The notes under the pieces are model-generated. The model saw only the letters and a program-made list of their open reading frames with translations, was not told where the DNA came from and made no database searches. A program made the position numbers and the translations under genes. Below, in pieces: positions 900 through 17,004 of a stretch of 64,000 bases of DNA (positions are counted from its first letter, which is position 1; every line of letters begins with the position of its first letter). Source of the stretch: Thalassobacillus devorans (GTDB taxonomy: Bacteria > Bacillota > Bacilli > Bacillales > Halobacillaceae); contig NZ_FXEH01000004.1 of the NCBI RefSeq assembly GCF_900176565.1, positions 124,001 to 188,000 on the forward strand, read 5' to 3'.

Positions 900-1691
900 T
901 TAAAAACGCTTAAAATAACGTTCATCATACCCCAAGCGTTCTGAGGCCTCTTTTCCAGCTTCCATCACTTTTTTGGCGATATCCGGAATTTTTTTGTCTT
1001 TCATCCGCTGGATCGGTCCAACAACGGTAATCGCGCTGACCACTTTTCCCTGGTAATCCCGGATCGGGGCAGCAACTGACTTCGTTCCTTCTGTTAATTC
1101 CTCTGTACTTACCGCGTACCCTTTTTCACGTATCGATACTAGTTCTTCTTGAAGCAGGTCAGGGTCCGTGATGCTGTTCTCTGTATAGGGACTTAATCCC
1201 TGACTAATGACCGCTTCTACAATATGATCGTCGCTAAAGGCGAGTAGTACTTTTCCTGAACTTGTACAGTAGGAAGGGTTTCTCCTTCCTAAGTGTGTCA
1301 GTATGCGAACAGGATGATTGCATTCTTCTTTATGGATATAAATCGTATCGAGCCCATCCATGATCGCTAAGTGTGCGGTTTCCCCGGTATCATTGACTAG
1401 TTTATATAGAACAGGAGCGGATTCTTTATGGATTTCCAGATTGTTGGTCACGATGCCTCCAAGCGTGAGGACTGACATGCCTAGTCTATAGGCGTTTGTT
1501 TTTTGATCTTTAATGACAAACCCTTCACTGGCAAGTGTGGATAGTAACCGGCTGACGGTGCTTTTAGCCAGTCCTAAGGATTCTGCCAGTTCACTCACTT
1601 TTTTGGTCGGTTCATAGGTGGAAAAGCTTTTTAAAATAAGTAATGCATTTTTTACAGAAGACAGTGTTTGCGGCTGCTTCTTTTTTGGCAT
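900..1691 (-). CDS. IclR-family transcriptional regulator
   Basis: 263 residues. The N-terminus (about 10-75) is a winged helix with recognition helix SLGLAKSTVSRLL. The rest is the IclR effector domain (GETAHLAIMDGLDTIYI; RNPSYCTSSGKVLLA; GYAVSTEELTEGTKSVAAPI). IclR proteins commonly control aromatic catabolic operons. I start it at ATG 1691 because GAGGTG lies just upstream; a GTG nine bases earlier falls inside that site. It diverges from the lower-pathway operon starting at 1983, which is its likely target; the inducer is unknown. Direct repeats and a palindrome in the shared promoter region are candidate operators. Confidence 0.9.
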   Translation of the reverse strand: MPKKKQPQTLSSVKNALLILKSFSTYEPTKKVSELAESLGLAKSTVSRLLSTLASEGFVIKDQKTNAYRLGMSVLTLGGIVTNNLEIHKESAPVLYKLVNDTGETAHLAIMDGLDTIYIHKEECNHPVRILTHLGRRNPSYCTSSGKVLLAFSDDHIVEAVISQGLSPYTENSITDPDLLQEELVSIREKGYAVSTEELTEGTKSVAAPIRDYQGKVVSAITVVGPIQRMKDKKIPDIAKKVMEAGKEASERLGYDERYFKRF

Positions 1692-1726
1692 GTTTTTCAC
1701 CTCTTGTAAATGTAGTTCTTTATACA

Positions 1727-1982: not shown

Positions 1983-3437
1983 ATGCAAACGACAAAAACA
2001 AAAGCGATTGATTGTACCCATTACATTGATGGTGCCTATGTGCAGTCAAACAATGGGAAAGCGTTTGAAAATGTTAATCCGGCAACAGAAGAAGTATTGG
2101 GAACTGTTGCAGAAGGTGGGAAAGAAGAAGTCGATCAGGCAGTAAGTGCTGCCAGAAAGGCACTTAAGGGTGAATGGGGCAATATGCCTCTAAAGAAACG
2201 ATCGAATATCATCCGCAAGATCGGTGACTTGATTTTGGAGAGAAAAGAAGAACTCGCCGAGCTCGAATCCTTGGATACAGGTAAACCACTATGGCTTTCG
2301 AATAAAGTTGATATTGATCGAGCAGCCAATAATTTTTATTTCTTTGCTGATTATATGACATCCGTTGGCACCGAGGCTTATCAACAGGATGATATCGCGA
2401 TTCATTATGCCGTGCGCCGTCCAGTTGGTGTTGTGGGACTCATTAATCCGTGGAACTTGCCGCTCTTCCTCATGACCTGGAAGCTGGCCCCAGCTCTAGC
2501 GGCAGGGAATACAGCTGTCATGAAGCCATCTGAAGTAACTCCAATGACCGCAACAGTGCTGGCTGAGATTTGTAAGGAGGCTGGGGTACCGGATGGCGTG
2601 GTCAATATGGTTCATGGCTTTGGTGTAACAGGTGCTGCCCTTTCTTCTCATGATGATGTAGATGCCATTGCCTTTACTGGTGAAACGGTAACTGGTACTG
2701 CCATTATGAAGTCTGCTGCGCCAACATTAAAGAAACTATCCTTTGAACTAGGCGGTAAGAATCCGAACATTATATTTGCCGATGCTGATCTGGATGATGT
2801 CATTGAAACTACAATAAAATCCAGCTTCATTAACCAAGGAGAAGTCTGCTTGTGCGGTTCAAGAATTTATGTGGAACGTTCCGCTTACGATGAATTCCTG
2901 GAACGATTTGCAGCAAAAACCAAAGAACTTAAAGTTGGGGATCCTTTCGATCCGGATACCAACGTCGGAGCATTGGTCAGTGAAGAACACTATAACAAAG
3001 TAGTCAGCTATCTGGATATTGCCAAAGAAGAAGGCGGTACATTCCTGACCGGCGGTAAGCCTGCAGAAGGATTTGATAAAGGGTTCTTCGTCGAACCGAC
3101 GATTATTACAGGGCTTGGAAGTGAGGCCAGATGTGTACGCGAAGAAATCTTCGGACCGGTGGTGACCGTTGTGCCGTTTGATACCGAAGAAGAGGTGCTC
3201 GAGCAAGTGAATGATACGCATTATGGCTTAAGTGCAAGCCTTTGGACGAGTGATATCAAACGTGCTACCCGCTTCAGCGCACAAATCGAAGCTGGTATGG
3301 TGTGGGTGAACACATGGTTCCTGCGCGACTTACGTACACCTTTCGGAGGAATGAAGCGCAGTGGTATTGGCCGCGAAGGTGGCGCTCACAGTTTTGATTT
3401 CTACTCTGAATTAACTAATATCACGTTAAAAATGTAG
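1983..3437 (+). CDS. 2-hydroxymuconic/2-aminomuconic semialdehyde dehydrogenase (DmpC/XylG/NbaE type)
   Basis: 484 residues, full length for this branch of NAD-dependent aldehyde dehydrogenases. Visible motifs: NPWNLPLFL, the catalytic Glu in ELGGKNPN (near residue 254) and the nucleophile Cys near residue 289 in GEVCLCGSR, a spelling typical of hydroxymuconic semialdehyde dehydrogenases. It oxidises the ring-cleavage semialdehyde to the oxalocrotonate level. The frame is open upstream to 1815, but AGGAGG at 1969-1974 selects ATG 1983. It is first of a four-gene operon with hydratase, decarboxylase and tautomerase. Sequence alone does not separate hydroxy- from amino-muconic substrates; the tautomerase and lack of a visible deaminase favour hydroxy. 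Confidence 0.85.
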   Translation: MQTTKTKAIDCTHYIDGAYVQSNNGKAFENVNPATEEVLGTVAEGGKEEVDQAVSAARKALKGEWGNMPLKKRSNIIRKIGDLILERKEELAELESLDTGKPLWLSNKVDIDRAANNFYFFADYMTSVGTEAYQQDDIAIHYAVRRPVGVVGLINPWNLPLFLMTWKLAPALAAGNTAVMKPSEVTPMTATVLAEICKEAGVPDGVVNMVHGFGVTGAALSSHDDVDAIAFTGETVTGTAIMKSAAPTLKKLSFELGGKNPNIIFADADLDDVIETTIKSSFINQGEVCLCGSRIYVERSAYDEFLERFAAKTKELKVGDPFDPDTNVGALVSEEHYNKVVSYLDIAKEEGGTFLTGGKPAEGFDKGFFVEPTIITGLGSEARCVREEIFGPVVTVVPFDTEEEVLEQVNDTHYGLSASLWTSDIKRATRFSAQIEAGMVWVNTWFLRDLRTPFGGMKRSGIGREGGAHSFDFYSELTNITLKM

Positions 3438-3447
3438 GAGGATGACA

Positions 3448-4242
3448 GTGAAAACAGATAACGTAACGAAAAAGGAAACGCATGCGAAGCACTTGTCAGA
3501 GGCGTGGAGTAAAGGGGAAGGGGTCCAGCCGATTACGGAGCTGGATCCTGAGATCTCCCTTGATGAAGCTTACCAGGTGCAATTGCAAACGGTAGACCAA
3601 AAAGTAAAACAAGGGCAGCGGATAACAGGGAAGAAAATCGGCCTTACATCCAAGGCCATGCAAGAATCGTTAGGTGTCAACGAACCGGACTATGGCCATT
3701 TATTAGACGAAATGGAATGCCCGAACCGAGGTAAGATTTCCTCCAAGCAAGTGTTACAGCCAAGAGTAGAAGGGGAAATAGCCTTCATCTTAAAAGAAGA
3801 TTTAGTCGGACCTAACGTAACGTCATTAGATGTATTAAAAGCAACGGATGTCGTGGTTCCAGCGCTTGAAATCGTAGACAGTCGCATTAAAGATTGGAAG
3901 ATCACACTAGCTGATACCGTAGCTGATAATGCCTCTTCCGGAATGTATATCCTCGGAGGAAAACCGAAAAAAGTGGAAGACGTAAACCTGAAACAAATGG
4001 GAATGGCGCTCTATAAAAATGATGAATTACTGAACACAGGTGTTGGTGCTGCGGCCTTAGGAGATCCGGTAAAATGTGTGGCCTGGCTCGCCAACAAACT
4101 GGCTGATTATGACATTACATTAAAAGCAGGGGAAATTATTTTATCAGGAGCATTATCTGCAGCCATGCCTGCTGAACCTGGTGATCATTTTTACGCAAAG
4201 TTTGCTGAGCTGGGAGAAGTGCATGTTTCATTCACGGAGTAA
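3448..4242 (+). CDS. 2-oxopent-4-enoate (2-hydroxypenta-2,4-dienoate) hydratase
   Basis: 264 residues of the MhpD/DmpE branch of the fumarylacetoacetase-like fold. Diagnostic stretches: GKKIGLTSKAMQ, VEGEIAFIL with a metal-binding acidic pair, EIVDSRIKDWKI, DTVADNASSGMYI and AGEIILSGALSA. It adds water to 2-hydroxypenta-2,4-dienoate to form 4-hydroxy-2-oxovalerate. AGGAGG (3436-3441) touches an ATG at 3442, so the usable start is GTG 3448, six bases downstream. The gap to the dehydrogenase is 10 bases. The aldolase that should act next is not in this window. Confidence 0.88.
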   Translation: MKTDNVTKKETHAKHLSEAWSKGEGVQPITELDPEISLDEAYQVQLQTVDQKVKQGQRITGKKIGLTSKAMQESLGVNEPDYGHLLDEMECPNRGKISSKQVLQPRVEGEIAFILKEDLVGPNVTSLDVLKATDVVVPALEIVDSRIKDWKITLADTVADNASSGMYILGGKPKKVEDVNLKQMGMALYKNDELLNTGVGAAALGDPVKCVAWLANKLADYDITLKAGEIILSGALSAAMPAEPGDHFYAKFAELGEVHVSFTE

Positions 4243-4256
4243 AGGAGGGTAATATT

Positions 4257-5045
4257 ATGGATAATCATCTAATTAATGAGCTTGCTGATTACGTACATGG
4301 TGCAGAAAAAGAAAAACGGGAAATAACAAAAATTACGGCCAATTTATATCCGGAACTTTCGATTGATGAAGGGTACATCATTCAAGAAGAACTGGTTCGC
4401 CAAAAAATTGAAGATGGCTATCAAATCATTGGCCCGAAAATGGGGATAACCAGTGAGGCTAAGATGAAGCAGATGGATGTAGATGATCCCATCTATGGAT
4501 ATGTATTCGATAATATGGTAGTCGAGGATGGAGATTCCATTTCCATTTCTGATTACATTCATCCCAAAGTGGAACCGGAAATCGGCTTTATTTTAGCAAG
4601 GGACCTGGAAGGACCAAACGTGACCGCATTGGATGTGCTGCGAGCGACAGAATATGTATTCCCGGCGATAGAGATAATCGACAGCCGATATGAGAACTTC
4701 AATTTTACACTGCCGGATGTCATTGCAGATAATACCTCTGCGGCTGGTGCTGTATTTGGAACCTATTTTAGAAAACCTGATGAACTGGACCTTGATGTGG
4801 TCGGTGTGACGTTATCGATCAATGGAGAAATCCAATCATTGGGAGCAGGAGCCGCTGTGCTTGGAAACCCAGCCAATTCAGTAGCCAGACTCGCCAATAT
4901 GGTAAGTAAAAAGGGAGAAAAAGTAAAAGCGGGACAGCCGATTTTAACCGGCGGTGTCACTGCAGCCGTACGACTATCTCCAGGTGACTTTGTCCAAGCC
5001 GAATACGGTGGATTAGGTAACGTCTCATTTTTCGTGAAAGAATAA
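4257..5045 (+). CDS. 4-oxalocrotonate decarboxylase (DmpH/NbaG type)
   Basis: 262 residues, a paralogue of the preceding hydratase but with decarboxylase-branch features: [39 protein letters not shown] and GLGNVSF at the C-terminus. It removes CO2 from the 2-oxo-3-hexenedioate tautomer of oxalocrotonate; decarboxylase and hydratase usually act as a complex, which fits their adjacency. The ATG follows AAAGGAGGG with normal spacing, 14 bases after the hydratase stop. Confidence 0.85.
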
Positions 5046-5073
5046 TTGGAACTCTTTAGAGGTGGTGATGGAT

Positions 5074-5265
5074 GTGCCGATTATCAATGTGCAAATGATG
5101 GAGGGAAGAGATCCCGAACAAATTGAAACACTGATGAAGAACCTGACTGACACTGTCAGTGAGTCACTGGGTGCTCCGAAAGAAAATGTACGCGTTCTTG
5201 TCAACGAAGTGCCAAAAACGCATTGGTCCATCGGTGGTACAAGTGCCAAAGCATTAGGAAAATAA
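5074..5265 (+). CDS. 4-oxalocrotonate tautomerase
   Basis: 63 codons. The family uses the amino group of Pro-1, exposed after removal of Met, so the start must put Pro second. Only GTG 5074 does this (GTG CCG ATT); it follows GAGGTGGTGAT at normal spacing, whereas ATG 5068 would place Asp-Val before the Pro. With this start the other known residues fall in register: Arg-11, Arg-39, and Trp-50 where the best-studied enzymes have Phe-50. It ketonises 2-hydroxymuconate to 2-oxo-3-hexenedioate, the substrate of the preceding decarboxylase. Last gene of the operon, followed by a terminator. Confidence 0.88.
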   Translation: MPIINVQMMEGRDPEQIETLMKNLTDTVSESLGAPKENVRVLVNEVPKTHWSIGGTSAKALGK

Positions 5266-5266
5266 G

Positions 5267-5329
5267 AAAAACACAGAGGCGATTCTCTGACTTCCAATTT
5301 TGGAAGCTGCAGAATCGTCTCTGTGTTTT
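5267..5329. terminator. Bidirectional terminator between tautomerase and LysR genes
   Basis: AAAACACAGAGGCGATTCT pairs with AGAATCGTCTCTGTGTTTT with one G-U pair. The A and T flanks let it work for both convergent genes; it overlaps the LysR stop codon. Confidence 0.85.
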
Positions 5330-6212
5330 ATTGGGCCTCTGTATATTTATGATTGATGATCGAGTAAATAATTTTTTTAGCCAGACTCTCGATGCGGGAA
5401 TTATTGCGAAATTGGACGTACACATGATTGGGTATATTATAAATTTCATCGATTTCCCGGACTTCCACTTCACTCTCGTACCTCCTATCAACTCCCAGTT
5501 TAGGGATGATACCTATCCCGATTTCATTGGCCACAGCATTCAGAAGCATTTCGTTATTATCGACATCCATGCGGGTAATATTCTGGGCGCCATTAAGTTG
5601 TTTATCAATTAAATTCCATAAAGTGGAGTTTCTTCGATAACTGATAATTGTTTCTCCGCTTAAATCTTTTACCCCCAAAGATTCTCTTTGACATAAGGCG
5701 TGCTCTTTTGGCAGGACCACCACCAAATTATTTTCAAATAAGTATTCGGAAGTAATGTCATGATTATTTGAGAGTGCATTTCTAGTAAAGATTAAATCAA
5801 CCTCTCCTGATAAAGCCCGCTCATTTAAACTGACAGAATCAAACCCTTCGATCACTTGAACATCAATATCCCCGATTGATTTGATCGTTTTTAAAAGTTC
5901 TACAATAAAAGAGTGCGAGTATCCGGGAGAGAAGCCGACCTTGATGATTGGATCTTTAACCATGTTGGGAATTTCTTTGGAGTGATTAATATATAACAGG
6001 ATATTTTTTGCGTATTCGATGAACAGATTTCCTTCTTCTGTCAGATATATTTCGTGTCCAATTCTTTTGAAAAGCTGGCATTGCAAGATTTCTTCTAAAG
6101 CCTTTATACGTGAGGTAACGGTCGGTTGGGTCACATCAAGAACTTCAGCAGCTTTTGAATAGCTTTTATATTTCACAATGGTAAGAAACGTATTCAATTG
6201 GCATTCATTCAT
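5328..6212 (-). CDS. LysR-family transcriptional regulator
   Basis: 294 residues: N-terminal winged helix (about 1-60; SYSKAAEVLDVTQPTVTSRI) and a periplasmic-binding-like effector domain (about 85-290). The start follows TAGGAGG. It is convergent with the tautomerase operon and divergent from the Rieske operon across about 0.6 kb, so it is probably the activator of the upper pathway, with a pathway intermediate as inducer. Its Lys/Arg-poor effector domain gives no clue to the ligand. Confidence 0.88.
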   Translation of the reverse strand: MNECQLNTFLTIVKYKSYSKAAEVLDVTQPTVTSRIKALEEILQCQLFKRIGHEIYLTEEGNLFIEYAKNILLYINHSKEIPNMVKDPIIKVGFSPGYSHSFIVELLKTIKSIGDIDVQVIEGFDSVSLNERALSGEVDLIFTRNALSNNHDITSEYLFENNLVVVLPKEHALCQRESLGVKDLSGETIISYRRNSTLWNLIDKQLNGAQNITRMDVDNNEMLLNAVANEIGIGIIPKLGVDRRYESEVEVREIDEIYNIPNHVYVQFRNNSRIESLAKKIIYSIINHKYTEAQ

Positions 6213-6296
6213 CTAGTTTCCTCCTAAAACTTACTTATTAAAAGGCTCTACTTAACCTCACTGGTTTAACAGAGACTATTAAAAAGGATGTAACAC

Positions 6297-6310
6297 GGAA
6301 AGCGCTTTCA
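6297..6310. promoter_or_regulatory. CcpA (cre)-like site upstream of the Rieske operon
   Basis: GGAAAGCGCTTTCA matches the Bacillus cre form TGAAAGCGCTTTCA at 13 of 14 positions, with a perfect 12-bp palindrome at its core. It lies 85 bases from the LysR start and about 0.5 kb before the oxygenase, as expected for carbon catabolite repression of one or both. Confidence 0.55.
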
Positions 6311-6473
6311 AAGATGGCTAAGCGATTGCAGTTAAAAGTAATCACCTTGGATAAAAGGTAGAAAATGGAGGATCCATTATTCCTAAAATCTACTAGTTAA
6401 TGGGGGAAGTTCCCGCTTAGAGTTAAGCATACGATGATTATATTGATAAAAAAGATAACTTGTCAACGGTGAT

Positions 6474-6489
6474 TACAGATAATTCTGTA
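6474..6489. promoter_or_regulatory. Palindrome TACAGA-TAAT-TCTGTA, candidate LysR operator
   Basis: Six-base perfect arms around TAAT. It lies 154 bases before the small reading frame at 6643 in the divergent region, where a LysR activator site would be expected. No reference motif supports it further. The rest of 6213-6640 is AT-rich and shows no convincing gene. Confidence 0.3.
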
Positions 6490-6642
6490 TTTTAGAAACT
6501 GTTGTATAAATTATTTTTTAATATTCGTGGTAAACCAAAGAAATATTCGATTGGTATCTAAAAATTCTGACTTTTATAATGAAAAGTAAGCAATTTAAAC
6601 AACATGAATTTAGTAATAACCAGCTAAGGAGGAAGTGGAAAA

Positions 6643-6750
6643 TTGTGTGATTTTTTACAAGGTGTAAGTGAAAAAAAAGAAGCATTAAGTTTAAAAAATA
6701 AGCTAAAAAAAGCTTTCGAAGAAATGCAAGCGCTAACAAAAGGAAGTTAA
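6643..6750 (+). CDS. Candidate 35-residue small protein ahead of the Rieske operon
   Basis: TTG start with AAGGAGG at 6626-6632 (10-base spacing), then 35 codons and TAA. The product begins MCDFLQGVSEKK and continues as a Lys/Glu/Ala-rich stretch that would form an amphipathic helix (KLKKAFEEMQAL). The stop is 56 bases before the oxygenase start on the same strand, so it would be first in that mRNA. I do not recognise the family. It could be a true microprotein, a leader peptide, or chance; the strong ribosome site is the main support. Confidence 0.42.
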   Translation: MCDFLQGVSEKKEALSLKNKLKKAFEEMQALTKGS

Positions 6751-6806
6751 ATACTACACCTGGGATCTCCCCAATGCTTTAGAAATCTAAAAATGAGGTG
6801 AATAAC

Positions 6807-8084
6807 ATGGAAGAATTAATCCGGGATAATCGGGAGAAAAATGAATTTCTTGTTCATCGAAGTGTTTTTACGGATAAAGAAATGCTGGCAAGAGAACGGG
6901 CAGAAATCTTCAATAAATGCTGGCTGTTTATTGGCCATGAAACAGAAGTTCCCGAAAAAGGAGATTACAAACGGAAAAAAGTAGGTGGACGTAACTTACT
7001 GCTTGTCCATAGTCAGGACGGTGAAATTAGAGCCCTGTATAATACCTGCCCACATCGCGGTGCACTTGTCGCCAGAGAAAATGAAGGTAATTCAAGGGTG
7101 TTTCGTTGTTTCTATCATGCCTGGAGCTTTAAAAATGATGGCCAATTGAATGGTATGCCGGGTAAAGATGGGTTCCCTGATGATTTTAACTGCGATGGCG
7201 AGAAAGACATGAAAGCGGTTAATCGATTGGAAAGCTATCGTGGGTTCATATTTGTGAACTTTGACGATCAGGCTATTTCCCTGGATGACTACTTAGGGGA
7301 TGCCAAGGAATATATTGACCTGGCAGCAGATCAATCCGAAACAGGATTGGAAGTTCTCGGAGGAGTGCAGGAATACAGTGTCCGGGCAAATTGGAAGCTG
7401 CTAGCTGAAAATAGCGTCGACCTCTATCACGGCATGCCTACCCATAAAACCTATTTCGATATTAAACAAGCCCAGGACCCTGGTTTAAAACGCGTGAAGC
7501 TGGAAGGAAGGGGCAAAGACCTGGGTAACGGTCACGCTGTTATGGAATATGTGGCACCTTGGGGAAGACCGGTTGCTCAGTGGACACCTATTTGGAGCGA
7601 AGATTTAAAACAAGATATGGAGAAAATGAAAGAAAAATTAGTGGAAAGGTTCGGAGAAGAACGTGCCGATCGAATCGCGAACTACAACCGGAACATTATC
7701 ATATTCCCTAATTTGGTTATCAACGACATTATGGCGATTACAGCAAGAACGTTCTACCCGTCGAGTCCAGGATATATGGAAGTCTCCGGCTATTCCTTAG
7801 CGCCTATAGGAGAAGATGAAGAGCATCGAATGGCCAGGAATAATAACTTCCTTGAATTTTTGGGACCGGGCGGATTTGCTACTCCGGACGACAATGAAGC
7901 ATTGGAACTATGTCAGGAAGCCTATAACAATAACGAGGAAGTTCAATGGAATGATATTTCTAAGGGCATGGTTAGAGGAGAAGAAAATGCCATGGCAACC
8001 GATGAACTCCAAATGAGGAGTTTCTGGAGGCAGTATAAGGTCAGAATCGAGGAATCCATGAAGAAGGAGGTTGCGCAGCCATGA
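6807..8084 (+). CDS. Aromatic ring-hydroxylating oxygenase, alpha subunit (Rieske)
   Basis: 425 residues. The Rieske [2Fe-2S] ligands are C81-x-H83 and C101-x2-H104 (CPHRG, CFYHAW). The catalytic domain has the mononuclear iron motif near residues 201-213: ENSVDLYHGMPTH, giving H208, H213 and bridging D205. It should form an alpha3-beta3 hexamer with the next gene and insert O2 into an aromatic acid. ATG 6807 is chosen because GAGGTG sits 6 bases upstream; a GTG nine bases earlier lies in that site. No cis-diol dehydrogenase gene accompanies it, so the product probably rearomatises by losing a leaving group. Exact substrate unknown. Confidence 0.9.
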   Translation: MEELIRDNREKNEFLVHRSVFTDKEMLARERAEIFNKCWLFIGHETEVPEKGDYKRKKVGGRNLLLVHSQDGEIRALYNTCPHRGALVARENEGNSRVFRCFYHAWSFKNDGQLNGMPGKDGFPDDFNCDGEKDMKAVNRLESYRGFIFVNFDDQAISLDDYLGDAKEYIDLAADQSETGLEVLGGVQEYSVRANWKLLAENSVDLYHGMPTHKTYFDIKQAQDPGLKRVKLEGRGKDLGNGHAVMEYVAPWGRPVAQWTPIWSEDLKQDMEKMKEKLVERFGEERADRIANYNRNIIIFPNLVINDIMAITARTFYPSSPGYMEVSGYSLAPIGEDEEHRMARNNNFLEFLGPGGFATPDDNEALELCQEAYNNNEEVQWNDISKGMVRGEENAMATDELQMRSFWRQYKVRIEESMKKEVAQP

Positions 8085-8569
8085 CAGTAGTAGCGCTAAC
8101 ACGCCAAAATGTGGTTGATTTCCTTTATAAAGAAGCCAAATTACTCGATGAATGGAAGCTGAAAGAATGGGCGGCATTGTTTACGGATGACGGCACCTAT
8201 AAAGTTCCGCCGATCGGCAAGCCTGAAGCCAGTCCGACGGAATCGCTATTCTATGTGCATGATAATCGGTCACGCCTGCAAGAGCGGGCGGAGCGCCTGT
8301 TGAAGAAAGAAGCCCATGTGGAATATCCGCACTCCACCACACTTCGAAATTACCATAACATTCTGGTTAGTGGTGTCGAGTCTGATGTAATTACAGTGGA
8401 GTGCAACTTTACAACACATCGAACCAAAAGAGAAGTGTTAGATACGTTTGTTGGTAAACACAAATACGAAATTGTTCAGCAAAATGGAGAACTTGCTATC
8501 AAAAGTAAAAAAGTGATCTTAAATCTCGATAGTTTAAGGCCGCACGGAAAAATCAGTTTAATTCTCTAA
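8081..8569 (+). CDS. Aromatic ring-hydroxylating oxygenase, beta subunit
   Basis: 162 residues, usual length for the SnoaL-like beta subunit. Features: VVDFLYKEAKLLDEWK, FTDDGTYKVP, a charged helix near residue 65, PHSTTLRNYHNI, and the family's C-terminal KKVILNLD. Its ATG overlaps the alpha stop (ATGA) and has its own AAGGAGG, the classic arrangement for coupled subunits. It is structural rather than catalytic. Confidence 0.88.
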   Translation: MTVVALTRQNVVDFLYKEAKLLDEWKLKEWAALFTDDGTYKVPPIGKPEASPTESLFYVHDNRSRLQERAERLLKKEAHVEYPHSTTLRNYHNILVSGVESDVITVECNFTTHRTKREVLDTFVGKHKYEIVQQNGELAIKSKKVILNLDSLRPHGKISLIL

Positions 8570-8598
8570 TAGTTTCCTAAGGAGAGGTGGTGAATGGT

Positions 8599-9624
8599 AT
8601 GAGTAATCAGCACGAAGTCTACGACATTACCATTGTAGGCGGTGGTCCAGTTGGTATGTTTACTGCTTTCTACGCAGGGATGCGTCAGGCAAGCGTGAAA
8701 GTTATCGAAAGTTTACCTCAACTGGGCGGCCAGCTGGCTGCGTTATACCCGGATAAATACGTCTATGATGTCGCTGGATTTCCTAAGGTGAAAGCGAAGG
8801 ATCTAGTCGAACAGTTAAAAGTTCAAATGGACCAATTTGAAAATGAGGTTTGCCTGGGTGAAGAAGTCAAAGAAGTCACAAAAGAAAATGATATTTTCAC
8901 AATCAAAACAAATACCCAGACCCATTACTCGAGAACGATCATTGTCACGGCCGGGAATGGCGCCTTTAAGCCGCGCAACATGAATTTAGAAAGAGAAGAA
9001 CACTATACAGGGAAGAACCTTCATTACAGTATCGAGGATATTAATGATTTTAAAGATAAAGATGTAGTCGTTTGTGGCGGCGGAGATTCTGCGGTAGATT
9101 GGGCGCTCATGTTAGAGAATGTTGCTTCATCGGTAAACATCGTCCATCGAAGAGACCGGTTCAGGGCTCATGAACATAGTGTCAATTTATTGAAGGATTC
9201 ATCTGTTAATATTCTAACTCCGTATAGTCCTTGTGAATTATTGGGAGAGGAAAAAATAGATTGCGTAAAACTGAAAAAAGCCAAGGCGGAAGAATTTATG
9301 GAATTAAAGGCAGATGAATACCTGGTCAATTATGGTTTTATATCCAATCTGGGACCTATTAATGACTGGGGACTTGAGATAGAAAAGAACTCAATTCTAG
9401 TAAACTCAAGAGCTGAAACGAATATTCCTGGAATCTATGCAGCAGGAGATATTTCAACTTATCCAGGCAAAGTTAAGTTGATGGCAACCGGTTTTGGAGA
9501 GGCTCCGATTGCCGTGAGTAACGCAAAAGTTTATATCAATCCAGATGAATCCTTACACGCAGCTCATAGTACATCCATCATGAGCAGGAAAGATAAGAAG
9601 AAGAAAGAAAAAGTAGTCACTTAA
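8599..9624 (+). CDS. FAD/NAD(P) ferredoxin reductase, YumC/thioredoxin-reductase type
   Basis: 341 residues. FAD motif [14 protein letters not shown] near the N-terminus, NAD(P) motif [15 protein letters not shown] in the middle, and the C-terminal FAD motif [14 protein letters not shown]; no CxxC redox pair, so it belongs with YumC-type ferredoxin-NADP reductases rather than true thioredoxin reductases. It probably reduces the operon's ferredoxin, which passes electrons to the Rieske centre. ATG 8599 follows GGAGAGGTGGTGA; two earlier GTG codons fall inside that site. The C-terminus is a short Lys-rich tail. Confidence 0.82.
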
Positions 9625-9663
9625 TATAAAAAGGACTGTTTTATAAAAGAGGAGGAACTTTAT

Positions 9664-10674
9664 ATGTCGAAAGTAAAAGAAGAAATCATCAGTCAGGAAT
9701 CAGCGCAGGAAAGGCTGGAAACTTATTTACGTACGGTTGCCCATATCGGCCATGTGGAGATCAGTGTCACTAATTTTGAGAAATCGCTATGGTTTTTCAC
9801 CGAAGTGATGGGTCTTGTATTAACCGAGACGGACGGAGATCGTGCCTATTTGCGGGCATGGCAGGACTTTGACCACCACACGCTTGTGCTGAAGGCCTCT
9901 AATACTTCAGAAGTCAACCGCATGGGCTGGCGTGTTAGCACAAAAGAGTCCCTGGAGCTATTCGAAAAGCAATTACAAGTAATGAATATTGACTGTCACT
10001 GGGTAGGTGGCGGACAAAAGAAAGCATTAGGAGATACGCTCCACTTCAAATCCCCTGCTGGAATTCCAGTTGAATTATATTGGGAAAAAGAATTGTTTGT
10101 AACGGATGATCCTGCTTTGAAATCAAACTTGCCAAGTCATCCAAGTAAGTATATGGCGAAAGGTGTCTCCCCTCGTCGCTTTGATCATGTCAATCTGATG
10201 GTTAATGATGTTGCGAAAGAACAACAATGGTGGACGGACTTGCTCGGTATTCACCATCGTTATTATATTCAAAACCAGGAAGATGTCCGTTTAGGGTCAT
10301 GGTTGAGCCGAACAAATATTGCACATGAAATTGCATTGATGAGAAACTCCAATCAAGATGGGGCAGCTTTCCACCATTTAGCCTATTACCTGGATTCCCC
10401 GGATGAACTTCTACGTGCATCCAATATTATGGCTGAGAATGGCATTAAGATTGAATGGGGCCCTGGTAAACATGGAACTAGTGGTGCGCAATTCATCTAT
10501 GTGTTTGAACCTTCTGGCCACCGCGTAGAAATCTGGACAGGCGGCATCCTTATGTTCTCCCCGGATTGGGAGCCGATCAAATGGTCTTCCGATGTTGGTC
10601 AGCTAGGCCTGGAGATGTGGGGAAGCACACCGCCGGAATCTTACCTGACTTATGGAACGAAAATAGGAGAGTAA
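9664..10674 (+). CDS. Type I extradiol ring-cleavage dioxygenase (catechol 2,3-dioxygenase family)
   Basis: 336 residues, two vicinal-oxygen-chelate modules. Iron ligands in the C-terminal module: H175 (RRFDHVNLM), H238 (AAFHHLAYYL) and E289 (GHRVEIWTG); the spacing (63 and 51) is close to that of XylE-type enzymes. The ATG follows GAGGAGG. Next to an ACMSD-like decarboxylase, the substrate is more likely a carboxylated catechol such as 2,3-dihydroxybenzoate, cleaved at 3,4, than catechol itself; that is inference. Confidence 0.88.
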   Translation: MSKVKEEIISQESAQERLETYLRTVAHIGHVEISVTNFEKSLWFFTEVMGLVLTETDGDRAYLRAWQDFDHHTLVLKASNTSEVNRMGWRVSTKESLELFEKQLQVMNIDCHWVGGGQKKALGDTLHFKSPAGIPVELYWEKELFVTDDPALKSNLPSHPSKYMAKGVSPRRFDHVNLMVNDVAKEQQWWTDLLGIHHRYYIQNQEDVRLGSWLSRTNIAHEIALMRNSNQDGAAFHHLAYYLDSPDELLRASNIMAENGIKIEWGPGKHGTSGAQFIYVFEPSGHRVEIWTGGILMFSPDWEPIKWSSDVGQLGLEMWGSTPPESYLTYGTKIGE

Positions 10675-10682
10675 TAGAAAGG

Positions 10683-10706
10683 GAGAGACTAGCTTGCTAG
10701 TCTCTC
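10683..10706 (+). other. Perfect intercistronic hairpin between dioxygenase and decarboxylase genes
   Basis: GAGAGACTAGC and GCTAGTCTCTC are separated by only TT, giving a stem of about 10 bp with a CTTG loop. The following bases (TATTCC) are too poor in T for a full terminator. It may set relative expression or mRNA stability within the operon. Confidence 0.5.
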
Positions 10707-10738
10707 TATTCCGAAACTATGAAGGTGGGGAGAGTTCA

Positions 10739-11788
10739 GTGGTGAAACCAGACCTAAACATTGATTTTCATACACATATCATTTCCGAGGACTTTCTGAA
10801 TTTGGCCGAAAAATATGGCGATGATCGCTGGCCTGTGTTAGAGAAAACATGTGACTGCGGTGCTAATATCATGATTAAGGGTAATAAATTCAGGGAGATA
10901 ACGGACCAGACCTGGGATGCAGAAAAGCGGCTGAGTGACATGGACAAAGAAGGTATTGATATTCAGGTTTTGTCTCCGATTCCAGTTACCTTCAGTTATT
11001 GGGCGGATCCTGAGCAAGGCTTGGAAATGGCAAGGTTCCAGAATGATTTCATTGCATCCGTCACACGTGAACATCCGAATAGGTTCATAGGGTTAGCTAC
11101 CGTCCCGTTACAAGATGTTGATTCAGCTATAAAAGAAATGGATCGAGCGGTCAATGAACTGGGGCTGAAAGGTATCGAAATAGGAAGTAACGTGAACGGT
11201 AAGAACTTGGATGATGACTCATTAGAGCGATTCTTCAAAGCGGCAAACGATCAGGAAGTACCGTTGTTTATTCATCCTTGGGCAACGTTAGGAAAAGAAC
11301 GGATGCCACGCCATAACTTTATGTATATGGTGGGGATGCCTTCCGAAACAGCCTTGGCAGCCGGGAGTATCATTATGAGCGGCATGCTGGATAGGTATCC
11401 AAACTTAAAATTATGTTTTGCCCATGGTGGTGGTTCTTTACCTTATTTATTACCAAGAATGGATAAAGGATGGAATGTATGGCCGCAAATCAGAAAGACG
11501 GAGAAGCCACCAAGTCACTATGCGAAATTACTATATTATGATTCCCTGGTTTACGATGAAGATAATTTGCAATTTATGATTGAGAAATTCGGAGTCGATC
11601 AAATCATAGCAGGTTCTGATTACCCTTTCTTATTACGTGAAGCACCATCGGGAGAAGTTGTTGACCGATTGTCGACATTAAGTGGCGCAGAAAAAGGGAA
11701 AATTCTCGGGCTTAATGCTTTAGATTTTTTAAATCTGAATAAAGAAGAATATACGAAGGCGGTCAAAGAGGAATTTAGTACGAAGTGA
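10739..11788 (+). CDS. ACMSD-like amidohydrolase decarboxylase
   Basis: 349 residues, full length for the ACMSD branch of the amidohydrolase superfamily. Zinc and catalytic residues are in place: H11-x-H13 (DFHTHI), a His in FIHPWA, a His in FAHGGGS and the Asp of GSDYPF. The IMIKGNKFREI and WDAEKRLSDMD stretches and the PLQDVD loop match 2-amino-3-carboxymuconate semialdehyde decarboxylase closely. It would decarboxylate the carboxylated ring-cleavage product. Start chosen at GTG 10739, 8 bases after AAGGTGGGG; GTG 10742 is possible. The neighbouring ring-cleavage enzyme is of the extradiol fold, not the cupin 3-hydroxyanthranilate dioxygenase, so the physiological substrate may be the hydroxy analogue. 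Confidence 0.8.
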   Translation: MVKPDLNIDFHTHIISEDFLNLAEKYGDDRWPVLEKTCDCGANIMIKGNKFREITDQTWDAEKRLSDMDKEGIDIQVLSPIPVTFSYWADPEQGLEMARFQNDFIASVTREHPNRFIGLATVPLQDVDSAIKEMDRAVNELGLKGIEIGSNVNGKNLDDDSLERFFKAANDQEVPLFIHPWATLGKERMPRHNFMYMVGMPSETALAAGSIIMSGMLDRYPNLKLCFAHGGGSLPYLLPRMDKGWNVWPQIRKTEKPPSHYAKLLYYDSLVYDEDNLQFMIEKFGVDQIIAGSDYPFLLREAPSGEVVDRLSTLSGAEKGKILGLNALDFLNLNKEEYTKAVKEEFSTK

Positions 11789-11850
11789 AAATAGATGATT
11801 AAGACAGATTGGAAATGTTACATCAAAACAGAGAGAAGGAGAGGATCATC

Positions 11851-12084
11851 TTGGCTTTTGTAATAACGGCTCCGTGCCGTCATGAAAAGGCAGCAGAGTG
11901 TGTGGATGTCTGTCCGGTTGATTGTATTGAAGAAGGGGAGGATCAATATTTCATTGATCCGAATACTTGTATAGACTGTGGTGCTTGTGTCGCAGCTTGC
12001 CCGGTAGAGGCAATCATTGATGAGCATGAATTATCACCCGATCAGGAGGAAATGCTGGAAAAGGCGGAAAGCTTTTTTGGATAG
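11851..12084 (+). CDS. fdxA: 7Fe-type ferredoxin ([3Fe-4S][4Fe-4S])
   Basis: 77 residues. Cys pattern: C9-x7-C17-x3-C21-P, then CIDCGACVAACP. The lack of a Cys three residues after C9 indicates one 3Fe and one 4Fe cluster, as in Thermus/Azotobacter FdI-like proteins. TTG 11851 follows GAAGGAGAGG; the frame opens earlier but without a ribosome site. As last gene of the oxygenase operon it is the probable carrier from the flavoprotein reductase to the Rieske centre, replacing the usual [2Fe-2S] ferredoxin. Confidence 0.85.
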   Translation: MAFVITAPCRHEKAAECVDVCPVDCIEEGEDQYFIDPNTCIDCGACVAACPVEAIIDEHELSPDQEEMLEKAESFFG

Positions 12085-15104: not shown

Positions 15105-16004
15105 TTATTTTACCCATTCATCAATCAAATCCCGGTTCTCGTCCACCCATTTCTCTGCTCCATCAATAGGCTCTTCGGCATTTTCTACATATTCAATCAG
15201 TTCGCCGATTTGCTGATCATCCATCTTCCAATTTTTAAACCATTCACTTACTTCAGGGTAATCTTCTTCAAATCCTTGTCTGGTAGCATGGTGGATTTTT
15301 TCTGTATCACCGAATGTGTTTTGTGGGTCTTCCAGGAATTTCAGGTCATACTTGGAGAATACCCAGTGCGGGCTCCAAAGTGGTGCCACGATAGGCTCCT
15401 CATTTTTTACTGCTTCTCCAATTTCAGCTATCATGGCAGATTCCGAACTTGGCAGCAGTTGAAGTTCGAGGTCATAGTCCTCGATTGCTTGTTCAACAAT
15501 TTCCATTGTACCAGCGCCAGGATCAAAACCAACAATTTCACTATTGAACAATTCTTTATGGTCATTTAAGTCTTCTATGCTATTCACATCTTCTAAATAT
15601 TCTGGGACAACAAGTCCTACTTTTGCATTGTCATACCAGGTAGCATCTGAGAAATTAACCGTGTCCTGATATTTCTCTAAGTAATTAGCATCCTGAACCG
15701 GCAGCCATATTTCTAAGCTGGCATCTAGATCGCCACTATCTAACGCACTCATCGTAGCTCCCATGTTCAAATTGTTTAATTTTACGTCATACCCTTTTTC
15801 TTCTAAAATCACTTTCCACATATTTGTTACAGCAATATTTTCAGCCCAGCTAATTTGACCAATGATTAGTTCTTGATCATTTTCTTCTGATTCTGTCCCT
15901 GATTGGTCACTGTCTGATTCTCCACTAGTGTTTCCGCATGCTGTCAGTACAGCCACCATTAGAATAGCGAAAATAAAACTAAGACTTTTTTTCCAGTTGC
16001 TCAT
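15105..16004 (-). CDS. Glycine betaine/choline ABC transporter substrate-binding lipoprotein (OpuAC-like)
   Basis: 299 residues. Lipoprotein signal with LTAC (Cys near 23), then the OpuAC-type fold: GQISWAENIAVTNMWK, GDLDASLEIWLPV, FDPGAGTM and PLWSPHWVFSKYDL, where Trp residues would form the aromatic cage for a quaternary amine. No ATPase or permease partner is adjacent, so it is an orphan that must share a transporter elsewhere. It lies downstream of gbsR on the same strand, which suggests choline or betaine as ligand and GbsR as regulator. The start follows AAGGGAG. Confidence 0.85.
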   Translation of the reverse strand: MSNWKKSLSFIFAILMVAVLTACGNTSGESDSDQSGTESEENDQELIIGQISWAENIAVTNMWKVILEEKGYDVKLNNLNMGATMSALDSGDLDASLEIWLPVQDANYLEKYQDTVNFSDATWYDNAKVGLVVPEYLEDVNSIEDLNDHKELFNSEIVGFDPGAGTMEIVEQAIEDYDLELQLLPSSESAMIAEIGEAVKNEEPIVAPLWSPHWVFSKYDLKFLEDPQNTFGDTEKIHHATRQGFEEDYPEVSEWFKNWKMDDQQIGELIEYVENAEEPIDGAEKWVDENRDLIDEWVK

Positions 16005-16036
16005 GTTGAAAAACTCCCTTTTGTTTTATATTAATC

Positions 16037-16068
16037 CTTAATACATTCAAAAAGTTTAATGTATTAAG
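16037..16068. promoter_or_regulatory. 11-bp inverted repeat upstream of the betaine-binding protein gene
   Basis: CTTAATACATT and AATGTATTAAG, perfect arms 10 bases apart, 33 bases before the start. It may be an operator, possibly for GbsR. A second element, TTAACATAAA at 16076-16085, recurs inverted at 16793-16802 upstream of gbsR. Confidence 0.4.
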
Positions 16069-16100
16069 AATTTATTTAACATAAATGCGCAAAGCAGCCA

Positions 16101-16155
16101 ACTCTTTCAATAAAAAGAGTGGTTCAACCAGGTAGTCCAGGCTGGACTACCTGGT
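16101..16155 (-). terminator. Two stem-loops after gbsR
   Basis: ACCAGGTAGTCCAG and CTGGACTACCTGGT form a perfect 14-bp inverted repeat around one base (16127-16155); next to it ACTCTTT/AAAGAGT form a second stem (16101-16120) that supplies the T-rich tail on the minus strand. Confidence 0.55.
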
Positions 16156-16168
16156 AATGCTTATTTAC

Positions 16169-16720
16169 TTAATCTTGTTGATCTTTCGGTAAGAACTCGA
16201 ATATCTCACCGCTTCTTATACTTTCCACTAAGTCTTCCAGCCAGTGATAATAGGTTTTAGATTCTTCTAGTTGATCATAGTATCCCTTTGCTTGGGCAAC
16301 AATTTCTGGTGTGCTGCTGGAATCTTTTATAACATCGATGAAATCTTCCTGCGCTTCTTCAATTGCATCCAAATTCATTTTCGCTTCCCGTTCCCACATC
16401 TGGCAATAAAACGCCATAAACGAACGGAAGAAATTTTTCTCCGCTGCATACGTATGTTTTCTGGAACCCCGTGTAAATGTTTTTTTCACCATTTTGATTT
16501 CCTGGAGCCTGCGGACACTGGTACTCATGCTTGGTTTACTCATTCCCAGTTCCTCACGCATTTCATCAAGTGTCATCTGATCTTCAAAGTACATCGTCGC
16601 ATATAAATTGGCAGCGGCTGGTGTTACCCCGTATAAATCCATTGTCTCCGCAATGGCGCCAATAACTTTATCTTTGGCTTCTTCTATTTTGATTCTCGAT
16701 TTTTCCATGGATTCACTCAT
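16169..16720 (-). CDS. gbsR: GbsR-type choline-responsive repressor
   Basis: 183 residues, matching GbsR (MarR-like superfamily). The winged helix is near residues 40-90 (LDEMREELGMSKPSMSTSVRRLQ), preceded by MDLYGVTPAAANLYATMYF and followed by RGSRKHTYAAEKNFF. In B. subtilis GbsR binds choline and represses choline import and oxidation genes. Here it diverges from gbsA-betA and leads toward an OpuAC-like gene, as expected for that regulon. Start follows AAGGAGCG. Confidence 0.88.
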   Translation of the reverse strand: MSESMEKSRIKIEEAKDKVIGAIAETMDLYGVTPAAANLYATMYFEDQMTLDEMREELGMSKPSMSTSVRRLQEIKMVKKTFTRGSRKHTYAAEKNFFRSFMAFYCQMWEREAKMNLDAIEEAQEDFIDVIKDSSSTPEIVAQAKGYYDQLEESKTYYHWLEDLVESIRSGEIFEFLPKDQQD

Positions 16721-16916
16721 AAGGTCGCTCCTTCAGTTTAAAGTAAACCAAATTAAAAAATAATTAAATATTTTGCACAAACTTTATGTTAACGTCTTCA
16801 GAAGAAATGTCAAATAGGAATTTTAATTTATTTTCGAGCAAATACCCGCTACATTACTCATCATAACCATTCCGGTCCCTGTTAATTCTTTTCAGGGTTT
16901 TTGTTTGAAAGTATTT

Positions 16917-16945
16917 TTGACAACCGTAAAAAGGCATGTTAGTGT
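16917..16945 (+). promoter_or_regulatory. Probable sigma-A promoter of gbsA-betA
   Basis: TTGACA (16917-16922), 17-base spacer, TAGTGT (16940-16945). The -35 is perfect, the -10 weak, as for a regulated gene. Upstream, CCCTG/CAGGG followed by TTTTT (16877-16903) forms a weak terminator-like hairpin. Confidence 0.5.
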
Positions 16946-17004
16946 TTTAAACGTTAAATAAATTTTTAATAAACTTAATTACTTCGAAAATGGAGTTGAT
17001 AGAT

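What the first reader, a model, noticed from the sequence alone, without database searches (positions are those of the whole stretch)
1983..12084. Aromatic-degradation island whose gene set implies lateral dioxygenation without a diol dehydrogenase
Seen: Rieske oxygenase, extradiol dioxygenase, ACMSD-like decarboxylase, semialdehyde dehydrogenase, tautomerase, decarboxylase and hydratase. Known: ACMSD works on 2-amino-3-carboxymuconate semialdehyde made by a cupin dioxygenase and is followed by a deaminase. Here the ring-cleavage enzyme is of the vicinal-oxygen-chelate type, no cupin or deaminase is present, and a 4-oxalocrotonate tautomerase is. Inference: an ortho-substituted benzoate such as anthranilate or a 2-halobenzoate is oxidised at C2-C3, rearomatises by losing its substituent to give 2,3-dihydroxybenzoate, is cut at 3,4, then decarboxylated to 2-hydroxymuconic semialdehyde.
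Basis: partly seen in the sequence, partly recalled or inferred. Interest (0 to 1): 0.75.

Follow-up and report, generated by a model that had tools for sequence, protein, structure and literature searches.

The report
Benzoate 2,3-dioxygenation operon, swapped dehydrogenase
A salt-loving bacterium carries a set of genes that probably breaks down benzoate by a route not yet demonstrated in any organism, and the enzyme that seems to be missing from it was lost and apparently replaced by an unrelated one elsewhere in the genome.

Summary
The island is real: semialdehyde dehydrogenase, hydratase, decarboxylase, tautomerase, LysR, two-subunit Rieske oxygenase, ferredoxin reductase, extradiol dioxygenase, ACMSD-like decarboxylase, 7Fe-type ferredoxin. 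The absence of a diol dehydrogenase is derived. Halobacillus karajensis and another Thalassobacillus keep an intact short-chain dehydrogenase (SDR) directly before the oxygenase; the window has only a remnant at 6709-6768 (84% over 62 nt; 0 of 500 shuffles match it). SDR-less genomes instead carry a 3-hydroxyacyl-CoA-dehydrogenase-family protein (HAD; here on another contig, C4:363482-364426). Of 20 genomes with the module, 11 have HAD only, 6 SDR only, 3 both, none neither. In a class sample HAD orthologues occur in 6 of 398 genomes, all among the 10 with this oxygenase. I read it as lateral 2,3-dioxygenation of benzoate, HAD-catalysed dehydrogenation to 2,3-dihydroxybenzoate, 3,4-cleavage, decarboxylation and the oxalocrotonate branch. 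A 2025 paper states that such a benzoate route is unknown and leaves open whether a Neobacillus has one. No activity has been measured, and kinship-corrected tests fall short of significance.

The parts
900..1700 (-). IclR-type regulator, divergent from the lower-pathway genes
   Evidence: ORF, family recognised from sequence (not run against a family library); orthologue in the same place in L002-L004, G418 and G707
1983..3437 (+). aldehyde dehydrogenase, probable 2-hydroxymuconic semialdehyde dehydrogenase
   Evidence: TIGR03216 best, 653.6 bits, under its cut-off of 693.25
3442..4242 (+). 2-oxopent-4-enoate hydratase-like
   Evidence: TIGR03220 best, 310.8 bits, under cut-off 408.8
4257..5045 (+). 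4-oxalocrotonate decarboxylase-like
   Evidence: TIGR03218 best, 297.1 bits, under cut-off 350.55
5062..5265 (+). 4-oxalocrotonate tautomerase
   Evidence: NF002524 91.1 bits, over cut-off 86
5328..6212 (-). LysR-type regulator, divergent from the oxygenase operon
   Evidence: ORF, family recognised from sequence; a LysR lies next to the oxygenase in L002-L006 and in most loci
6709..6768 (+). remnant of a short-chain dehydrogenase (ancestral dihydrodiol dehydrogenase) gene
   Evidence: 84% over 62 nt to the intact SDR gene of Halobacillus karajensis; 0 of 500 dinucleotide shuffles of the slot reach its score
6798..8084 (+). Rieske oxygenase alpha subunit (proposed benzoate 2,3-dioxygenase)
   Evidence: PF00355, PF00848; CxH-CxxH and NSVDLYHGMPTH motifs; about 31-35% to annotated BenA on plasmids, nearest non-Bacilli plasmid relatives 43-52% (lists capped)
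8081..8569 (+). Rieske oxygenase beta subunit
   Evidence: PF00866
8587..9624 (+). TrxR-like ferredoxin-NADP reductase, proposed electron donor
   Evidence: best solved relatives are ferredoxin-NADP reductases 6gas and 3lzw, E 8e-138 and 3e-137
9664..10674 (+). extradiol dioxygenase of VOC type (proposed 2,3-dihydroxybenzoate 3,4-dioxygenase)
   Evidence: TIGR03211 294.7 bits, under cut-off 320.2; solved relatives
10694..11788 (+). [quoted passage not shown]
   Evidence: PF04909; ACMSD 2wm1 E 3.3e-77
11809..12084 (+). 7Fe-type (FdxA-like) ferredoxin, proposed electron carrier
   Evidence: NF045480 and NF058577 below cut-off, PF00037 over cut-off; cysteine spacing read from the sequence

Best explanation
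The island encodes breakdown of benzoate (or a benzoate without a para substituent) by lateral attack. Proposed steps: (1) the Rieske alpha-beta oxygenase, fed by the TrxR-like reductase and the 7Fe-type ferredoxin, makes cis-2,3-dihydroxy-2,3-dihydrobenzoate; (2) an NAD-dependent dehydrogenase makes 2,3-dihydroxybenzoate; ancestrally this was an SDR encoded just before the oxygenase, of which the window keeps only a remnant, and in this lineage the step is done by an unlinked 3-hydroxyacyl-CoA-dehydrogenase-family protein (HAD, G000:C4:363482-364426); (3) the VOC extradiol dioxygenase cuts between C3 and C4; (4) the ACMSD-like enzyme removes CO2 to give 2-hydroxymuconic semialdehyde; (5) dehydrogenase, tautomerase, decarboxylase, hydratase, then an aldolase encoded elsewhere. 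Shown here: gene content, SDR decay, the SDR/HAD replacement pattern, purifying selection. Inferred: every chemical step, the substrate, and HAD's activity. Rationale for HAD: the C2-OH of the 2,3-dihydrodiol is beta to the carboxylate, the position that this fold oxidises in 3-hydroxyacyl-CoA and (recalled) in free beta-hydroxy acids such as L-gulonate and carnitine.
For: Intact SDR directly before the oxygenase in H. karajensis G012 (L004:8181-8981), Thalassobacillus G047 (L131:9199-9978, 90%) and G169 (L134, 71%). Remnants in that slot in 7 of the 11 HAD-only genomes (G000, G045, G046, G418, G707, G688, G003), each 0 of 500 shuffles; G688 keeps a 99-residue stub. Of 20 module genomes: HAD only 11, SDR only 6, both 3, neither 0 (Fisher p 0.0022, not corrected for kinship). 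HAD orthologues (73% or more; next best 50%) in 6 of 398 class genomes, all among the 10 with the oxygenase (p 4e-11); 0 of the 35 oxygenase-negative genomes exceed 36%. Test made after the idea: of 8 further oxygenase-positive genomes, 7 carry the module; the 2 of these without HAD (G449, G754) both have the SDR in the same cluster. Five SDR/HAD changes on the oxygenase tree, with differences inside Thalassobacillus and inside genus g97. Purifying selection after SDR loss: G000 vs G046 dN/dS 0.009-0.066 for oxygenase subunits, extradiol enzyme, decarboxylase and HAD. HAD keeps S/H/E/N residues (catalytic assignment recalled). BenE-family permease in the neighbourhood in 5 of 20 module genomes, aromatic-acid symporter-like protein in 5 of 20, one or other in 8 of 20. 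Semialdehyde dehydrogenase block beside the module in 9 of 20 loci fits an unsubstituted C4. cis-2,3-dihydroxy-2,3-dihydrobenzoate is stable for days at neutral pH, so it needs an enzyme (PMC12442788, sections read).
Against: No activity measured. In this genome HAD is unlinked, and none of my query genes except a partial aldehyde dehydrogenase (36%) matches within about 8 kb of it. HAD's relatives include CoA-dependent enzymes, so it could instead serve side-chain beta-oxidation that feeds benzoate. With kinship allowed for, the SDR/HAD opposition rests on 5 independent pairs: p 0.0625 without the 'both' genomes (where opposition is true by construction), median 0.125 with them, 0.375 with the three oxygenase-positive genomes that have neither; with those three Fisher p is 0.077. 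HAD was first noticed because it lies near the module in some genomes. Transporters are absent from the fetched neighbourhoods of 12 of 20 module genomes, the window's among them, and those tested on NCBIfam score under its cut-offs (BenE is over the Pfam cut-off in the four tested). Extradiol and ACMSD-like proteins match catechol dioxygenase and ACMSD; no 2,3-dihydroxybenzoate enzyme sequence was on hand to compare. A distant, unlinked SDR could do the step.
Confidence: 0.52

Rival explanations
1. One reading: an ortho-substituted benzoate (anthranilate, salicylate, 2-halobenzoate) is oxidised at C2-C3 and loses its substituent spontaneously, so no dehydrogenase is needed; the SDR decayed because it had become useless.
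For: The SDR is decayed while the rest is under strong purifying selection; kynureninase, which yields anthranilate, is in the genome; the lower pathway fits any precursor of 2,3-dihydroxybenzoate with a free C4.
Against: Leaves the HAD association unexplained. Kynureninase is in 44 of 44 family genomes, the oxygenase in 5 of 44. The six non-Bacilli plasmid regions with a relative of the oxygenase that I viewed each hold an SDR gene (in the Mycobacterium and Rhodococcus ones it is about 6 kb away).
Confidence: 0.13
2. The real diol dehydrogenase is an unlinked distant SDR; HAD does something else, for example side-chain beta-oxidation of phenylpropanoids to benzoate.
For: G000 has 23 SDR matches, best 38%; HAD belongs to the 3-hydroxyacyl-CoA dehydrogenase family.
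Against: Does not predict the SDR/HAD pattern, or an SDR in the cluster of the two new HAD-negative module genomes.
Confidence: 0.2
3. o-Phthalate 2,3-dioxygenation (Opa type) with a decarboxylating dehydrogenase.
For: Same downstream logic, including an ACMSD-like decarboxylase OpaD and a two-subunit oxygenase (PMC6362003, sections read); a beta-hydroxyacid dehydrogenase could also suit the phthalate diol.
Against: Neighbouring transporters, where present, are of benzoate/aromatic-acid families, not the TAXI-TRAP type of opa; OpaB is like BenD. OpaAa could not be compared directly.
Confidence: 0.1
4. Protocatechuate 2,3-cleavage (pra type): the oxygenase makes protocatechuate from a para-substituted benzoate and the ACMSD-like enzyme removes the 5-carboxylate.
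For: PraH of Paenibacillus sp. JJ-1b is related to OpaD and NbaD-type decarboxylases (Table 1 of PMC6362003); that pra has an IclR regulator is recalled.
Against: Near oxygenases and SDRs sit in clusters of p-cumate-like make-up, where attack is at C2-C3 (inference). The pra sequences were not compared.
Confidence: 0.05

Closest known systems
2,3-dihydroxybenzoate meta-cleavage in Pseudomonas sp. PTH10 (opa genes, o-phthalate)
   Same: Rieske 2,3-dioxygenation, extradiol 3,4-cleavage, ACMSD-like decarboxylase, semialdehyde dehydrogenase/tautomerase/decarboxylase branch (PMC6362003)
   Different: opa has a BenD-like dehydrogenase in the operon, a DhbA-type extradiol enzyme of 285 aa, and ferredoxin and reductase of what its authors call a type III system; here the SDR is decayed, the extradiol enzyme is C23O-like (336 aa), with a 7Fe-type ferredoxin and a TrxR-like reductase
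p-cumate 2,3-dioxygenase pathway (cmt)
   Same: attack at C2-C3 of a benzoate; p-cumate dioxygenase turns benzoate into cis-2,3-dihydroxy-2,3-dihydrobenzoate (PMC12442788)
   Different: cmt uses a hydrolase for its ring-cleavage product; the window has a semialdehyde dehydrogenase branch. CmtAb was not available for comparison
Benzoate 1,2-dioxygenase BenABCD
   Same: two-subunit Rieske oxygenase; BenA is the best NCBIfam profile (295.9 bits)
   Different: far below the cut-off of 780.95, about 31-35% identity, other reductase type
Kynurenine-pathway ACMSD
   Same: best solved relatives of the amidohydrolase (2wm1, E 3.3e-77)
   Different: no cupin 3-hydroxyanthranilate dioxygenase in the island; the partner is a VOC extradiol dioxygenase. 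The rest of the genome was not searched for the cupin or a deaminase
3-hydroxyacyl-CoA dehydrogenase family (best solved relative 4om8, 5-formyl-3-hydroxy-2-methylpyridine 4-carboxylate 5-dehydrogenase)
   Same: both Pfam domains and catalytic residues
   Different: below the cut-off of every NCBIfam model it matches; occurs with a Rieske oxygenase in place of an SDR

Membership tests
2,3-dihydroxybenzoate meta-cleavage (dhb/opa type) | extradiol dioxygenase acting on 2,3-dihydroxybenzoate | not testable with these tools
   VOC extradiol enzyme present; substrate cannot be read from sequence
2,3-dihydroxybenzoate meta-cleavage (dhb/opa type) | decarboxylase for the carboxylated ring-cleavage product, and semialdehyde dehydrogenase branch | tested here: met
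   as gene families only: ACMSD-like amidohydrolase, ALDH, tautomerase, decarboxylase, hydratase encoded; aldolase over cut-off elsewhere in the genome
2,3-dihydroxybenzoate meta-cleavage (opa type) | dihydrodiol dehydrogenase of SDR type in the operon | tested here: not met
   only a remnant at 6709-6768; intact in G012 and G047
Benzoate 1,2-dioxygenase (BenABCD) | BenA equivalog score over cut-off | tested here: not met
   295.9 bits against 780.95; the alpha subunit is the only PF00848 protein found in the genome
Benzoate 1,2-dioxygenase (BenABCD) | BenD dehydrogenase | tested here: inconclusive
   no BenD query was run on the genome; SDRs of G000 reach 38% at best to a related SDR
Anthranilate 1,2-dioxygenase (AntABC or AndA) | equivalog score over cut-off | tested here: not met
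   197.8 of 671.9 and 170.7 of 750 bits
Kynurenine-type ACMSD pathway | cupin 3-hydroxyanthranilate dioxygenase and aminomuconate deaminase with it | tested here: inconclusive
   neither seen in the island; genome not searched for them
p-cumate degradation (cmt) | hydrolase for the alkyl-ketone ring-cleavage product | tested here: not met
   none in the island; ALDH branch instead
Protocatechuate 2,3-cleavage (pra) | protocatechuate 2,3-dioxygenase PraA and decarboxylase PraH | not tested
   sequences not on hand
3-hydroxyacyl-CoA dehydrogenase family (for HAD) | 3HCDH_N and 3HCDH domains, catalytic S/H/E/N | tested here: met
   PF02737 and PF00725 over cut-off for the G003 orthologue; residues invariant in 9 orthologues, the window genome's among them (assignment recalled)
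cis-dihydrodiol dehydrogenase (function) | NAD-dependent oxidation of cis-2,3-dihydroxy-2,3-dihydrobenzoate | not testable with these tools
   needs an assay

The most novel reading that the evidence does not exclude
This is a genuine benzoate degradation pathway by initial 2,3-dioxygenation, scattered across Bacilli, in which the cis-dihydrodiol dehydrogenase has been replaced several times by a member of the 3-hydroxyacyl-CoA dehydrogenase family, a fold not known (to me) to do this job; the swap works because the C2 hydroxyl of the dihydrodiol is that of a beta-hydroxy acid.
Probability: 0.5. Interest if true: 0.82.

Novelty: new variant of a known kind. Interest (0 to 1): 0.7.

Why it matters
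Kiel et al. 2025 (PMC12442788; introduction, sections 3.1 and 3.8 and discussion read) write that no benzoate pathway through 2,3-dioxygenation is known, that its dihydrodiol is in no known catabolic pathway, and that it remains to be examined whether Neobacillus sp. EB600, which excretes the dihydrodiol and 2,3-dihydroxybenzoate on benzoate, has one. They speculate that the lack of a semialdehyde dehydrogenase may be why their Pseudomonas cannot grow this way; the window has one in the cluster. The operon gives definite genes for testing the question, and HAD would be a new dihydrodiol dehydrogenase type. It also warns against deducing a substrate from a missing gene: here the gap is a loss with an apparent substitute elsewhere.

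Tried and rejected
Anthranilate through kynureninase: 5 of 5 oxygenase genomes match the kynureninase family, 4 of 5 over the cut-off (split in two frames in Aneurinibacillus), which looked suggestive, but it is in 44 of 44 family genomes, so it was dropped as evidence.

Linked SDR as functional in the window: rejected, only a remnant. No remnant signal in 4 of 11 HAD-only slots: G746 (37 of 500 shuffles reach the score), G223 (22), G228 (46), G217 (51); their SDR history is unknown.

Oxygenase-positive genomes left out of the 20: G416, G247 and G537 (46-50% identity, own starred clade in the tree, other gene contexts). They have neither SDR (37% or less) nor HAD orthologue. With them Fisher p is 0.077. 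G416 does have a second-type VOC enzyme near its oxygenase, so leaving it out is a judgement. G099 is counted as SDR only, but its oxygenase lies in two frames and its SDR match covers 172 of 253 residues; without it p is 0.0048. G228 (Aneurinibacillus) has oxygenase, HAD and kynureninase each split by frame, perhaps draft errors. G099 was left out of the trees; one of the two frames of G228 was used. In the independent-pairs test the 'both' genomes were dropped, which makes the opposition true by construction; one search repeats it with them (4.2 of 5 pairs opposed, 0.8 not differing) and with the three 'neither' genomes (4.0 opposed, 0.8 the same way).

Literature: led to PMC6362003. Among the papers listed (20 of 54; 4 of 4; 12 of 118; 12 of 2,693; 12 of 19; 12 of 95), none has a title or abstract start that describes this pathway; only PMC12442788 poses the question. 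In one search (15 of 21 listed) the phrase '3-hydroxyacyl-CoA dehydrogenase family' occurs in none of those listed. This covers the held open-access library only. PMC4005966 (passages) reports phenol degradation for T. devorans; no benzoate report for it was among the 12 of 17 passages shown. (8 of 96 listed) has no listed paper with 'thioredoxin reductase-like'. No structure prediction was run: the fold is plain from sequence and a model would not give the substrate.

Full report
What is there. The window is C2:124001-188000 of a 4.07 Mb genome; its oxygenase is 99% identical to that of Thalassobacillus devorans CECT 7046 (L002). From 1983 to 12084 it holds two gene blocks. Left: ALDH, hydratase, 4-oxalocrotonate decarboxylase, tautomerase, with a divergent IclR. 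Right: LysR (-), Rieske alpha and beta, TrxR-like ferredoxin-NADP reductase, VOC extradiol dioxygenase, ACMSD-like amidohydrolase, 7Fe-type ferredoxin. IclR and LysR were named by eye. Most score below the strict equivalog cut-offs, so names are by best relative. The alpha subunit is the only PF00848 protein found in the genome. It is about 31-35% identical to annotated plasmid-borne BenA and 43-52% to a separate group (capped lists).

The same module elsewhere. L002-L006 show LysR-oxygenase-(reductase)-extradiol-decarboxylase in two Thalassobacillus, Halobacillus karajensis, Oceanobacillus senegalensis and Aneurinibacillus tyrosinisolvens. In H. karajensis an acylating acetaldehyde dehydrogenase and an aldolase follow (by eye; the aldolase is over the TIGR03217 cut-off in 14 of 14 genomes searched). 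The oxygenase is rare: 5 of 44 family genomes (E 1e-40), 10 of 398 class genomes (1e-60), 10 of 397 order genomes (1e-100). Twenty genomes carry it with extradiol, decarboxylase or SDR partners: G000, G045, G046, G047, G012, G003, G418, G707, G746, G688, G223, G169, G228, G217, G128, G514, G605, G754, G449, G099.

The missing dehydrogenase. A search with the SDR of a Pontibrevibacter relative cluster led to an intact SDR in H. karajensis immediately before the oxygenase (L004:8181-8981; 55% to the query). It stands in the same place in Thalassobacillus G047 (90%) and G169 (71%). In G754 (67%), G449 (61%), G128, G099 and G514 an orthologue lies elsewhere in the same neighbourhood, in G605 on another contig. 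In the window this slot (6213-6797) has no gene, but an 84% match over 62 nt to the SDR gene at 6709-6768. Remnants beat all 500 dinucleotide shuffles in 7 of 11 HAD-only genomes and not in 4. In G688 a 99-residue C-terminal stub remains. The six non-Bacilli plasmid regions with a relative of the oxygenase that I viewed each hold an SDR gene, in two of them about 6 kb away. So an SDR in this place is the older state, at least in the clade of the window's oxygenase, and has decayed here. Genome-wide, the best SDR in G000 is 38% to the Pontibrevibacter query, a generic level, and none passes E 1e-40 with the H. karajensis query.

The substitute. In SDR-less loci a 3-hydroxyacyl-CoA-dehydrogenase-family gene (HAD) kept appearing. 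Searched across 50 genomes, orthologues of 73-100% are in 9, all oxygenase-positive: G003, G418, G000, G045, G223, G046, G128, G217, G228. None of the 35 oxygenase-negative genomes exceeds 36%, and the SDR-bearing G047, G012, G169 and G099 have none. In the class sample 6 of 398 genomes have an orthologue (73% or more, next best 50%), all among the 10 with the oxygenase (Fisher p 4e-11). I then looked at 8 further oxygenase-positive genomes. G707, G746, G688, G514 and G605 have HAD; G754, G449 and G537 do not. G754 and G449 have the SDR in the cluster; G537 lacks the module. Totals for 20 module genomes: HAD only 11, SDR only 6, both 3 (G128, G514, G605), neither 0. On the oxygenase tree there are 5 changes; SDR and HAD genomes occur side by side in Thalassobacillus and in genus g97, though forks around the latter are unresolved. 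Kinship-aware tests have 5 pairs and cannot reach 0.05. The HAD tree is poorly resolved at depth.

Is the rest still in use? Between G000 and G046, dN/dS is 0.025 (alpha), 0.034 (beta), 0.009 (extradiol), 0.058 (decarboxylase) and 0.066 (HAD). Operon and HAD are under strong purifying selection.

Substrate. BenE-family permeases lie in the neighbourhood of the module in G223, G169, G228, G217 (PF03594 over cut-off) and G754 (TIGR00843, 170.6 of 203.4 bits; G223 188.2 and G228 201.4). Aromatic acid/H+ symporter-like proteins (TIGR00895, 376-396 bits against 418.55 in the four scored) lie beside HAD in G418, G707 and G217 and near it in G228 (4 of the 14 HAD loci), and beside an oxygenase in G128 (58% to the G228 one). 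In all, 8 of 20 module genomes show one or the other in the fetched stretches and 12 do not, G000 included. HAD in G045 lies beside a meta-cleavage-type hydratase and an extradiol-like fragment. A semialdehyde dehydrogenase block sits beside the module in 9 of 20 loci (G000, G045, G046, G047, G012, G418, G707, G223, G169), which implies an aldehyde, hence hydrogen at C4. This speaks against para-alkylbenzoates. Benzoate fits best; anthranilate or o-phthalate are not excluded.

Chemistry and literature. PMC12442788 (abstract, introduction, 3.1, 3.8, discussion and passages) reports that p-cumate dioxygenase turns benzoate into a stable (2R,3S)-2,3-dihydrodiol which unspecific host enzymes did not oxidise, that the carboxylated ring-cleavage product needs a decarboxylase, that no benzoate pathway of this kind is known, and that Neobacillus EB600 may or may not have one. 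PMC6362003 (abstract, Table 1 section, discussion) shows the same downstream logic for o-phthalate with an ACMSD-like decarboxylase. In the 2,3-dihydrodiol the C2 hydroxyl is beta to the carboxylate, the group that the HAD fold oxidises. The best solved relative, 4om8, is named for a free pyridine carboxylate substrate (that it uses no CoA is recalled).

Electron transfer. Kweon et al. (PMC2358900, abstract in part and passages) list five types of Rieske systems; the word thioredoxin does not occur in the text. [quoted passage not shown] The pairing here looks unusual, but its function is inferred from position only.

Verdict. The island is a real, conserved catabolic module. The inference from the missing dehydrogenase is not supported: the gene was lost, and a phylogenetically complementary dehydrogenase is present elsewhere. 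Nothing has been assayed.

Noticed in passing
window 8587-9624 and 11809-12084: A TrxR-like ferredoxin-NADP reductase and a 7Fe-type ferredoxin inside a Rieske oxygenase operon, a pairing not among the five types of PMC2358900. Of the 20 module genomes, 13 have the reductase gene and 10 the ferredoxin gene in the fetched stretch.
   Followed up: partly
L135, L136, L138, L181-L183 against window 9664-10674; L180:7579-8640: The ring-cleavage enzyme is exchanged between genomes: the window's C23O-like type, a second VOC type (about 25% identical), and in L180 a protein that by eye looks LigB-like, not checked against a family library.
   Followed up: partly
L130:41-2264 and L159:5-6816: Further hydratase, tautomerase, aldehyde dehydrogenase and extradiol-like genes lie elsewhere in two Thalassobacillus genomes, so these bacteria seem to have more than one meta-cleavage branch.
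   Followed up: no
L108-L112 (kynureninase loci): Kynureninase is in all 44 family genomes searched; in the five loci viewed an arylformamidase-like gene lies close by, and in L111 and L112 a tryptophan-dioxygenase-like gene stands between them (both named by eye).
   Followed up: partly
L006/L135 and L112 (Aneurinibacillus tyrosinisolvens): Oxygenase, HAD and kynureninase are each split over two frames, perhaps errors of this draft.
   Followed up: no
window 15105-20261: Betaine-type substrate-binding protein, betaine-aldehyde-dehydrogenase-like and choline-dehydrogenase-like genes, ordinary osmoprotection genes of a halophile; named by eye.
   Followed up: no
L158:8483-11101: In the window's genome the solitary HAD gene is followed by a transposase-like gene (by eye), which may have to do with its being unlinked from the module.
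   Followed up: no
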